The position numbers were made by a program, and so were the translations under genes. Shown here one piece after another: positions 26,149 to 30,427 of a stretch of DNA of 61,333 nucleotides. A model generated the notes under the pieces. That model was not told the DNA's origin, searched no databases, and was given only the letters and a program-made list of their open reading frames with translations. This DNA is from Deltaproteobacteria bacterium (GTDB lineage Bacteria > Desulfobacterota > Desulfarculia > Adiutricales > Adiutricaceae), in NCBI GenBank assembly GCA_031264185.1, contig JAISEL010000008.1:1-61333 (forward strand). Reading direction: 5' to 3'. Each line of letters starts with the position of its first letter. Within the stretch, counting starts at the first letter, position 1.

Positions 26149-27351
26149 CTATTTTTCAGCCTCTTCCTGCTGGTTAAATTTGTTGAACTTAAATTTTTTT
26201 CTTCTTTTACTAACGGCGACAGTTGCTGTCATTCCTGAGACCGCCACCAAACCCAATCCCCACGGCAGTTTGCGGTAACTCCACCGGGACAGGGAGACAT
26301 TGAGACTAAAGGTCATAACCTCGTTTGAACCATTAACCGGTAACACGGCCACGGACAGTTTGGCTGCACTTGAGCCGCCCATGGGGCCGCTAACCACCAC
26401 CAAGGAAGGGTCATCGACCGGGCTTAAAGTATATTTTTTATTATTTGGGTTAAAAGTTATGGGCGCGGGCTCAATGCCGCCTGGTTTGGAATCAACCAGG
26501 TACCCCCCAGCTGGAGCTGCTTGTTGGCCTAAATTGGCCACGGAAAAATCTACTGTCTGACCAGTTTGTAACCCCCGGAAGGGCATGCCGTTGTAGCTGC
26601 CTTCGGGAAAGACCAATTTTGGCCAATCGGTTGGCATGGGGGATTCCGGGACCGGAGCGAGACCTTTGGTATCATTATCAGTCAAGAAGTGAAGAAAGTT
26701 GTATTGGCTGAAGACAGTTGTTCCGTCTAGACTGTACCGGGAAAAAACCTCTGTGGTGGAAAAAGTTGTCGCCTTAATATCCGCCCGCCAAACCCCTTTG
26801 TCCATGGTCACCTCTGCTTTGTGGGTGGTCTTTCCCAAAGGAACTCCTCCATGCCGAGCCAAAGTTCTGGCCGTGACCACATAATAGACTTCCGGGGCCT
26901 CAGTCGGTTGGGCTGCCCCCTGAACGTGAAGATAAATTTTATGGACGGGGCTTCGGTTCATGGCACGCGAATGACTGACAGTAACCGCCGCACTGGCTGG
27001 ATTCTTGTCGTCCTTTTTGGATTCCGAGGCTGCGGCGGACTCAGCGGAGCCGTGAGGGGCAGACACTGGCCTGGTCATTCCCGCTTGGGCTCCCTCGCTG
27101 AGCCGGCCGTCGGACACGGAGTGCCCGGCGGCCGCAGAACCCTGGTGCCCTGGGCGCCCATTGGCGGAGGCAGCCTCCTCTGAGGGCTTGGGGAAGGCGC
27201 TTTCAGCGGCCATCCCGTGGCTGCCCGTCCTGGCCGCTGTAGCCGGAGCCCACCAGCCGTAAGGTTTCAGATGAGTCGGATCGTCCGCCAAAAGCGGGCT
27301 GGTTCCCATTAAAAAAGCGACAAAAATAATAATTAAAGATAAATGTTTCAT
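26149..27351 (-). CDS. Secreted membrane-anchored protein of the uptake island
   Basis: 400 residues, not a family I recognise. It begins with a Sec signal peptide (LSLIIIFVAFLMGTSPLLAD), then a low-complexity Ala/Ser/Glu-rich segment (about 38-120), a beta-rich body with VHKIYLHVQGAAQ and SYNGMPFRGLQTGQTVDFSV, and close to the end a membrane helix (LPWGLGLVAVSGMTATVAV) with a Lys-rich tail SKRRKKFKF. So it should be periplasmic and anchored in the inner membrane. Its own promoter carries a Fur-box-like palindrome at the start site. Position beside the polyferredoxin-TonB operon suggests a role in substrate handling. Confidence 0.8.
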   Translation of the reverse strand: MKHLSLIIIFVAFLMGTSPLLADDPTHLKPYGWWAPATAARTGSHGMAAESAFPKPSEEAASANGRPGHQGSAAAGHSVSDGRLSEGAQAGMTRPVSAPHGSAESAAASESKKDDKNPASAAVTVSHSRAMNRSPVHKIYLHVQGAAQPTEAPEVYYVVTARTLARHGGVPLGKTTHKAEVTMDKGVWRADIKATTFSTTEVFSRYSLDGTTVFSQYNFLHFLTDNDTKGLAPVPESPMPTDWPKLVFPEGSYNGMPFRGLQTGQTVDFSVANLGQQAAPAGGYLVDSKPGGIEPAPITFNPNNKKYTLSPVDDPSLVVVSGPMGGSSAAKLSVAVLPVNGSNEVMTFSLNVSLSRWSYRKLPWGLGLVAVSGMTATVAVSKRRKKFKFNKFNQQEEAEK

Positions 27352-28732: not shown

Positions 28733-29506
28733 ATGATGAACCTTAGTTTTTTCACACCAAGATTTCCTGGTCCGCGTTTTGAAAGTAATTTTCTGCCTGC
28801 GGAGACGACGTATGAGCTGGCCGCCTATGAAACTTTACTGATTGAGCTGGCCAAGCGATTGTACCTTCGGGATAATCCAGGCAGGCGGCGTTTACCGAAA
28901 GGCTTTTCCGGCTCCAGACTGGTCATTGAAAGAATTGACCCCGGAAGCGCCTGTCCGGTTATGGGCTTGGTCGCTGGCGAAAGTTCTTCCGTTCAGCCAT
29001 CGCTTTTTCCCCGTGATTTTACTGCTTATTTCATCAATTCCCGCGATTTGACTGCCGAATGCGCCGCCTCGCCTGCTGATAAGCTGCCTGAAGATTTTCC
29101 TGAAGATCTTCTGCCTCATTTCAACAAATTCGGGCGTTCCCTTAAGGAAAAAGAGTCTTTGGAGCCGGCCCGCTCTGAAAACCCGGAACCGGCTGTGTTA
29201 ACGCAGCAAAAACGCCGGAAATTGGCATCAGCTGTCAGTTCAGACTATGAAATCAGTGTGGAATTGCTGGGCTCCGTCGTCAGGGCTGATTGGACAAAAT
29301 CTACTTTTAATCTGCTTATGGCAGACGGCTGTCAAGTTACTATTCCTTGCCCGGAGAATTTTCGTAACAAAGCCGGCCGGTTCGGCGGCCGAGCCAGAGA
29401 TATGGTTTATGTCTCCGGAACAGGTTCCTGCGATTCATCGGATAACTTAAAAAAGTACTTTCGGTTGATTCAGCCGAAGGCATCAAAAACTATGAACTCA
29501 CGGTGA
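28733..29506 (+). CDS. Conserved hypothetical protein, first of an overlapping pair
   Basis: 257 residues; I cannot name a family. The N-terminal third carries a recognisable-looking block, YETLLIELAKRLYLRDNPGR followed by RRLPKGF and IERIDPGSACPVM, which suggests a conserved domain. A polar Pro/Glu/Lys-rich middle (about 118-165) leads to a beta-rich C-terminus (YEISVELLGSVVRADW, NLLMADGCQVTIPCP). No signal peptide or membrane helix. The stop overlaps the next start by 4 bases (GTGA), so the two are coupled. Such tight pairs in accessory DNA are often toxin-antitoxin or defence modules, but no catalytic motif shows this. Confidence 0.75.
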   Translation: MMNLSFFTPRFPGPRFESNFLPAETTYELAAYETLLIELAKRLYLRDNPGRRRLPKGFSGSRLVIERIDPGSACPVMGLVAGESSSVQPSLFPRDFTAYFINSRDLTAECAASPADKLPEDFPEDLLPHFNKFGRSLKEKESLEPARSENPEPAVLTQQKRRKLASAVSSDYEISVELLGSVVRADWTKSTFNLLMADGCQVTIPCPENFRNKAGRFGGRARDMVYVSGTGSCDSSDNLKKYFRLIQPKASKTMNSR

Positions 29507-29730
29507 CTTTTGATGATTTGGCCCAACTTCAGGAAGGCTGGTACGACGGAGAAGGACTGCCCCCGGTTCGCCGGGGCCTGGAAATTGTAGCTAGAGCCCT
29601 TATAGAGTTCTGTCCTGACTGGGTGCCTTTGCCGGAAATCGTTCCAACGCCGGAAGGCAATTTACTTATTGAATGGGGTGAGGCGGAGGGTTGCCCGCCA
29701 TTTGATATTGACCTAATGATATTGACCTAA
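29503..29730 (+). CDS. Small acidic hypothetical protein, second of the pair
   Basis: 75 residues, strongly acidic, starting at a GTG inside the last codons of the gene before. The pattern LQEGWYDGEGLPP...ALIEFCPDWVPLPEIVPTPEGNLLIEWGE is characteristic: W-x-DGEG, then an alpha helix, then P-x-P-x-x-x-PT-x-EG-x-x-x-EW. I have seen this type of small protein described only as hypothetical. Charge and size would suit an antitoxin or inhibitor of the first protein. No ribosome site is needed if translation is coupled. Confidence 0.72.
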   Translation: MTFDDLAQLQEGWYDGEGLPPVRRGLEIVARALIEFCPDWVPLPEIVPTPEGNLLIEWGEAEGCPPFDIDLMILT

Positions 29731-30427
29731 AAAATATGACCGCCAGTTTTCATTCATTCGGGAAAAAAGGTGAAGATGACTTAGTGCAGGAGTTTGATTT
29801 GAATTTTAATGATAATTTTAAAGTTTTTTTTGATTTTTTGTCAAACAATATTCGATAGATATTTATATGGAACCGAATTTACTGCTTTTAAGGCAAATTA
29901 CCCATTTTTTCTTAAAAAGGTAACCCAACAAGTCAAGCGTTTATACCTTTTCCTAAAGATAAGTCAAAATTATCTGTTTACGATGGAACTATTATTGGAT
30001 ATATTGAATCGTACAATTTATACATATAATCTAAAATCAGCTGGTGTCTGGGGCGCAAGCAGCAATGAAGTCAGGGAAATCGGTCTGACAAGCCGGTCTG
30101 ACCCTTCGGCTGACTCATCCGCCCACTGCCTTATTGATTTTTCTTCCGCCGCCTCGCCTGGCGGGCCGCGAAAATTCGCCAGGAGCTTAAAAATGCAGAC
30201 CGTCGCCCGCGGCTGTTTATATAAACCGCCTGATTCACTCCCCTGACTCAGGACCTGCAGACTGCAGCGAAGGGAAATCTTAAATAAGCATCTGACCATG
30301 CCTCAAGGCGACAGCCAGAGCCTTACTGCATTCCGCCCGGATTAGTCAAACCTCTGACTATAAGGATACTGCAATTATACCTGTAAATCTATTTTACTTA
30401 AATCACTGCTGTTTATTATAATTATTT
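29731..30427. other. Gene-free stretch
   Basis: Nothing supported. A 145-codon plus-strand frame (29809-30246) crosses AT-rich and GC-rich halves of different composition and has no domain, so it is taken as chance. TATAAT lies only 8 bases before the waaC ATG, so that messenger could be leaderless. Confidence 0.55.

What the first reader, a model, noticed from the sequence alone, without database searches (positions are those of the whole stretch)
28733..29730. Overlapping two-gene unit of unknown function
A 257-residue protein and a 75-residue very acidic partner overlap by GTGA and sit alone in accessory DNA next to AT-rich gaps. The small protein has a distinct W-x-DGEG ... PT-x-EG ... 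EW pattern. Size, charge and coupling suggest a toxin-inhibitor or defence pair.
Basis: inference. Interest (0 to 1): 0.6.

Follow-up and report, generated by a model that had tools for sequence, protein, structure and literature searches.

The report
Broken copy of a candidate phage-defence pair
The two 'genes' are pieces of one broken gene, followed by the wreck of a second; intact versions in many bacteria form a candidate phage-defence pair that looks like a toxin and its antidote.

Summary
The two open reading frames exist as described, but they are not two genes. Both match one ~373-residue protein: the 257-residue frame matches PADLOC model PDC-M32A positions 2-243, the 75-residue frame positions 262-330 of the same model. 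A third piece follows in the third frame. Directly downstream lie three out-of-frame pieces of the normal partner gene, PDC-M32B. The locus is therefore a decayed copy of a two-gene 'phage defence candidate' whose function is untested. Intact pairs occur in many phyla: 40 of 40 M32B loci found in named genomes have an M32A-type frame directly upstream, and 15 of 40 have type I restriction-modification genes within 6 kb. The predicted fold of M32B best matches ADP-ribosyltransferase-fold proteins (top 19 rows, Z 4.0-7.6), with no support at sequence level. In five loci M32B is broken while M32A is whole; the reverse was never seen. Best reading: M32B is a toxin and M32A its antitoxin, with the C domain as the neutralising part. 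This copy is dead.

The parts
28733..29461 (+).
   Evidence: PDC-M32A model 2-243, E 9e-55; profile A8 2-243, 178 bits
29446..29688 (+).
   Evidence: PDC-M32A model 262-330, E 6e-16; profile A8 241-321, 60 bits
29703..29730 (+). 14-bp tandem direct repeat at the point where the M32A frame changes again; the 75-aa ORF's stop lies in the second copy
   Evidence: read from the sequence
29718..29831 (+). M32A remnant, piece 3, third frame: C-terminal end
   Evidence: profile A8 327-364, E 8e-4, 9.3 bits; weak alone, collinear
29864..29917 (+). M32B remnant, piece 1 (start of the partner gene)
   Evidence: profile A7 5-22, E 0.015; weak alone, collinear
29919..30026 (+). M32B remnant, piece 2, other frame
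   Evidence: profile A7 24-59, E 2e-13
30022..30228 (+). M32B remnant, piece 3, third frame (inside ORF 29809-30246)
   Evidence: PDC-M32B model 56-121, E 2e-11; profile A7 61-127, E 6e-14

Best explanation
The locus is a decayed copy of the two-gene unit that PADLOC calls PDC-M32. Inferred for the intact unit: M32B (about 125 aa) is a toxin with an ADP-ribosyltransferase-type fold. M32A (about 373 aa) is its antitoxin. The N domain and OB-fold domain would sense, bind nucleic acid or regulate, and can be exchanged. Where the unit sits inside type I R-M operons it would act as a second line that fires when the first line or the antitoxin is disturbed. In this genome the copy no longer works.
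For: Broken single gene. Broken partner. Coupling: 40 of 40 genome loci found by M32B have an M32A-type frame directly upstream, in L072 as fragments; the same four plasmids carry both genes with 4-11 bp overlap. C domain tracks M32B: 15 of 16 N+C places are followed by M32B, whole or broken, against 0 of 8 strong N places without the C domain, which have PIN (7) or an XRE/ImmA-type protein (1). Four of the 40 loci keep the C domain before M32B without the N domain, two of them with an AF2212-like antitoxin N-terminus. Fold: M32B model pLDDT 95.9; VIA-align rows 1-19 are all Tpt1/KptA, Tse2, DarT, TreTu or NarE, Z 4.0-7.6, next row Z 3.5. Asymmetric decay: M32B broken with M32A whole in 5 loci (C29, L066, L068, L070, L122), reverse 0. 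Context: type I R-M genes within 6 kb in 15 of 40.
Against: No sequence-level link between M32B and any ART family: Pfam none, PDB profile search only chance matches, hhalign to KptA 0.1%; Foldseek alone gave no E <= 0.001, and Z under 8 can be a common arrangement. No toxicity, neutralisation or anti-phage data; the related candidate PDC-M63 showed no defence in the one published test seen (PMC12409345, passages). The R-M association has no background rate. The window copy shows no R-M neighbour among the proteins scanned. G012 and L113 have M32A but no detectable M32B.
Confidence: 0.68

Rival explanations
1. M32 is a defence pair but not toxin-antitoxin: M32A is the sensor or effector (OB fold binding nucleic acid) and M32B an accessory enzyme or signal part needed for activity.
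For: M32A is three times larger and has an OB-fold domain (Z 8.5 to Rim1); PADLOC lists the pair only as a candidate; the N domain also occurs with other enzymes.
Against: One-sided decay and the swap of N-terminus with an AF2212-like antitoxin part fit an antitoxin better.
Confidence: 0.22
2. The genes are whole in the organism and the breaks are sequencing or assembly errors.
For: The genome is a 166-contig draft and some breaks lie in A- or T-rich runs.
Against: Four frame changes within about 0.8 kb while the neighbouring genes are long and open; one break lies at a 14-bp tandem repeat, not a homopolymer; the second copy in the genome has a whole M32A but a broken M32B.
Confidence: 0.08
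3. The gene is active by programmed frameshifting: the first M32A break lies at an A AAA AAG heptamer (dnaX-type slippery site, recalled).
For: The heptamer is in frame at the end of the first piece.
Against: The paralogue and the other relatives are continuous; three further frame changes follow.
Confidence: 0.03
4. The reader's two ORFs are a genuine two-gene pair of a 257-aa protein and a 75-aa inhibitor.
For: GTGA overlap and the acidic small ORF. C domains do occur without the N domain elsewhere.
Against: Both match one continuous protein in collinear order; none of the 40 genome loci shows this split.
Confidence: 0.02

Closest known systems
PDC-M32 (PADLOC-DB phage defence candidate, genes M32A and M32B)
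   Same: Same two protein families in the same order and adjacency.
   Different: Here both genes are broken across frames; the class itself is a prediction without a known mechanism.
PDC-M63 (PADLOC-DB candidate, M63A and M63B)
   Same: M63B shares a weak N-domain similarity with M32A (E about 1e-4).
   Different: Different partner (nucleotidyltransferase-like by recalled motif), gene order reversed; no C domain found.
Type II toxin-antitoxin modules with modular antitoxins (AF2212-like, VapBC-like)
   Same: Small gene plus overlapping partner; two relatives carry an AF2212-like N-terminus; N-domain relatives pair with PIN genes.
   Different: The usual M32A is much larger and comes first; toxicity and neutralisation are untested.
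Tpt1/KptA, NAD+ lobe
   Same: Best structural match of M32B (8tfi, Z 7.6, rmsd 2.9 A, 88 residues).
   Different: M32B lacks the RNA lobe (aligned range covers only Tpt1 90-177); no sequence similarity.
Tse2 and DarT, ADP-ribosyltransferase-fold toxins with immunity partners
   Same: Structural matches over most of M32B (Z 7.3 over 103 residues, Z 5.2 over 105) and a partner protein.
   Different: No sequence link; M32A is not a macrodomain antitoxin like DarG (recalled).

Membership tests
PDC-M32 | M32A homologue present | tested here: met
   both ORFs hit the same PDC-M32A models
PDC-M32 | M32B homologue directly downstream | tested here: met
   PDC-M32B 56-121, E 2e-11, plus two further pieces
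PDC-M32 | both genes as whole reading frames (working system) | tested here: not met
   three frames each: filed as a decayed copy
Type II toxin-antitoxin | two small adjacent genes, coupled | tested here: met
   intact relatives: 40 of 40 adjacency, CDS overlap 4-11 bp
Type II toxin-antitoxin | toxin harms the cell, antitoxin neutralises it | not testable with these tools
   needs expression tests; only indirect support
ADP-ribosyltransferase fold (M32B) | ART fold | tested here: inconclusive
   predicted model only; rows 1-19 ART-type, Z 4.0-7.6; Foldseek E > 0.1
ADP-ribosyltransferase fold (M32B) | catalytic residues and NAD+ use | not tested
   invariant R9, S23, S37, H90 are candidates; no coordinates were available to check geometry
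Tpt1/KptA (PF01885) | RNA lobe plus NAD+ lobe, Arg-His-Arg-Arg tetrad | tested here: not met
   only the NAD+ lobe aligns; three tetrad residues lie in the RNA lobe (PMC6333775 passages); no Pfam match

The most novel reading that the evidence does not exclude
M32A-type proteins are a shared immune platform: one N domain plus OB fold, on which different C-terminal parts and partner effectors are exchanged (ART-fold M32B with the acidic C domain; PIN nuclease; XRE/ImmA-type protease; in distant form the nucleotidyltransferase-like M63A), several of them lodged in type I R-M operons as back-up modules. M32B would be a new ADP-ribosyltransferase-fold toxin family neutralised by a new acidic antitoxin domain.
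Probability: 0.4. Interest if true: 0.66.

Novelty: new member of a known kind. Interest (0 to 1): 0.4.

Why it matters
It corrects a tempting misreading (two fragments taken for a toxin-inhibitor pair). It also gives an untested candidate defence system its first concrete hypothesis here: which gene is the toxin, which domain is the antidote, and what kind of enzyme to assay. The N-domain with PIN arrangement gave no PADLOC match for its PIN gene in the three PIN genes scanned, so related systems may be missed by current scans.

Tried and rejected
Pfam and NCBIfam on the window ORFs: no match. Pfam on 33 M32B members: only chance-level single hits. PDB sequence search with M32B: only weak chance-like matches, best E 0.29; with M32A: none. 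hhalign of M32B against KptA from nine sequences: probability 0.1%, same as unrelated controls. Foldseek against PDB and viral models: nothing at E <= 0.001. A conserved programmed frameshift at the M32B break: considered because both copies in this genome break near the same A-rich spot, rejected because the two frame changes go in different directions (read). Background rate of R-M neighbours: not measured. Neighbour scan: 136 of 139 chosen neighbour proteins were scanned; three very long ones were dropped to meet the size limit. Structure alignments: A7 used 33 of 38 and A8 35 of 36 of the full-length proteins listed (near-duplicates, extended or divergent ones left out).

The sign test on decay (0.25 to the 5th = 0.001) assumes breaks fall by gene length and ignores ascertainment: loci were found by M32B, those by M32A. 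Left out of that count: L061 and L071 (M32B at a contig end), L031 (odd M32B tail), L072 and the window (both genes broken), G012 and L113 (M32B absent).

Full report
What is there. Pfam and NCBIfam have no name for either. The same genome, however, holds a second copy on another contig as one continuous 382-aa frame. The two closest full-length relatives in other genomes are 373 and 385 aa.

One gene, not two. The intact 373-aa relative L003 matches the window first with residues 7-246 (28745-29461), then with residues 241-332 in another frame (29443-29721). PADLOC gives the same answer: the 257-aa ORF covers PDC-M32A positions 2-243 and the 75-aa ORF positions 262-330 of the same model. A three-frame scan adds a third, weak but collinear piece at 29718-29831. 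The second frame change sits at a 14-bp tandem repeat, 29703-29730.

The true partner lies downstream. In L003 the next gene encodes 125 aa. It matches the window in two frames at 29901-30026 and 30007-30228; the three-frame scan resolves three pieces, 29864-29917, 29919-30026 and 30022-30228. PADLOC names this family PDC-M32B. So both genes are present and both are broken. The second copy of the genome has a whole M32A but a frame change and a stop in M32B.

The intact unit is real and widespread. A search for M32B in genome contigs returned 40 loci; the record titles name Proteobacteria of several classes, Planctomycetota, Acidobacteria, Actinomycetota (Dietzia), Chloroflexi, Bacteroidales, Spirochaetaceae and others. 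All 40 have an M32A-type frame directly upstream, in L072 only as fragments; in L061 the partner frame itself was not called because it runs to a contig end. In plasmids, M32A and M32B each hit the same four records, side by side; the annotated CDS overlap by 4-11 bp. One plasmid copy stands among RelE/ParE and VapBC genes, another near R-M-type genes. Type I R-M genes (HsdM or HsdS) lie within 6 kb in 15 of the 40 loci, one of them by a 73-aa fragment only (Pfam check of one operon; 8 HsdM and 10 HsdS among 136 scanned neighbours). No background rate was measured. In about 400 genomes per phylum the N domain was found in 8 of 398 and 10 of 392, seed genomes included; in the window's own phylum an M32A profile hit 11 of 395 genomes. 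It is therefore uncommon.

Domain logic. The M32A model (pLDDT 89.3) shows an N part (1-170), an OB fold (175-255; Rim1 Z 8.5) and a C domain (257-372) with median charge -14 over 35 sequences. Over there are 16 places with N and C domains (window, second copy and three seed genomes included): 15 are followed by M32B, whole or broken, and one (L113) is not. Eight further places have a strong N domain but no C domain, and none has M32B: seven have a PIN-type gene and one an XRE/ImmA-type protein. Weak N relatives L081, L115 and L116 are PDC-M63B next to PDC-M63A. Weak C-domain-only hits (L080, L082, L083, L085) and one weak N hit (L125) were not classified. Conversely, four of the 40 loci keep the C domain before M32B without the N domain (L045, L047, L052, L058), two of them with an AF2212-like N-terminus above Pfam's cut-off; viral contig L031 shows the same with an unassigned N-terminus. 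A domain that follows one partner while the rest is swapped is what a neutralising antitoxin domain looks like; this step is inference.

M32B. The model is very confident (pLDDT 95.9). Foldseek alone found nothing significant, but realignment of its top 1000 put 19 rows of Tpt1/KptA, Tse2, DarT, TreTu and NarE first (Z 7.6 to 4.0); the next row is a KH domain at Z 3.5. That Tse2, TreTu and NarE share the ART fold is recalled; that DarT is an ADP-ribosyltransferase toxin is in the start of an abstract seen in a listing (PMC8501950). The alignment covers only the NAD+ lobe of Tpt1 (lobe limits: PMC6333775, passages), so M32B is not a Tpt1. There is no sequence-level support. I treat the ART fold as likely but unproven.

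Decay pattern. With M32A whole, M32B is broken in five loci: the second copy here, L066, L068, L070, L122. M32B is absent in two more (G012, L113). M32A broken with M32B whole was not seen. If breaks fell by length, five of five in the shorter gene has a chance of about 0.001. The count is small and has the ascertainment limits given under Tried and rejected. Loss of a toxin with its antitoxin kept is the direction expected of a toxin-antitoxin pair.

The site. The genes to the right (heptosyltransferase, Sel1 protein, second heptosyltransferase, and in two of three also LpxK and WaaA within the stretch taken) are found in the three same-genus genomes examined, without M32; the window's left-hand genes were not found there. 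The remnant thus lies at the border of a variable region.

What is known. 'PDC-M32' appears in one paper of the library: PMC12429752, passages seen, lists it as a component of a hypothetical defence system in a Sinorhizobium prophage. PDCs come from a guilt-by-embedding study (Payne et al. 2024 preprint, seen only as a reference and as described in PMC12988326 passages); I have not read the preprint, which may already assign domains. The related PDC-M63 pair was deleted in one native host without a defence effect (PMC12409345, passages). Two further searches for ART toxins with type I R-M or with Tpt1/Tse2 listed no paper whose title or abstract start names this family.

Verdict. The locus is a dead copy of a catalogued candidate system. 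The family-level hypothesis (ART-fold toxin M32B, modular antitoxin M32A) is new as far as I could check, and directly testable in laboratory strains.

Noticed in passing
L019 6446-6505 (own genome, contig C29): The second PDC-M32 copy has a 30-bp tandem repeat at the M32A/M32B junction and a broken M32B, while its M32A is whole.
   Followed up: partly
L076, L077, L078, L079, L119, L124, L126 (also L005, L006): M32A-type N domain plus OB fold without the C domain, directly followed by a PIN-domain gene; the four PIN genes checked, in L005, L006, L076 and L078, match Pfam PIN (L006 just below the curated cut-off), and the others match a profile built from these. An apparent PIN toxin-antitoxin pair with a large antitoxin; in L076 it lies between type I R-M-like genes (judged by eye).
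   Followed up: partly
L123: N-domain protein followed by an XRE/ImmA-type protein (RmrA-like in PADLOC) instead of PIN or M32B.
   Followed up: partly
L029 4941-5390 (Gordonia phage MagicMan gp32): An M32B relative without a detectable M32A, near a BrnT-like toxin gene, the integrase and the immunity repressor.
   Followed up: no
L022 5597-5959 (G017): The acidic C domain alone as a 120-aa ORF; no M32B found in that genome: possibly an orphan antitoxin.
   Followed up: no
window 26149-27351 (minus strand): A 400-aa ORF with no Pfam or NCBIfam match, next to the AT-rich gap; origin and function unknown.
   Followed up: no
L042 3903-4883: An Abi_2 (abortive infection family) gene directly upstream of an M32 unit inside a type I R-M operon.
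   Followed up: no
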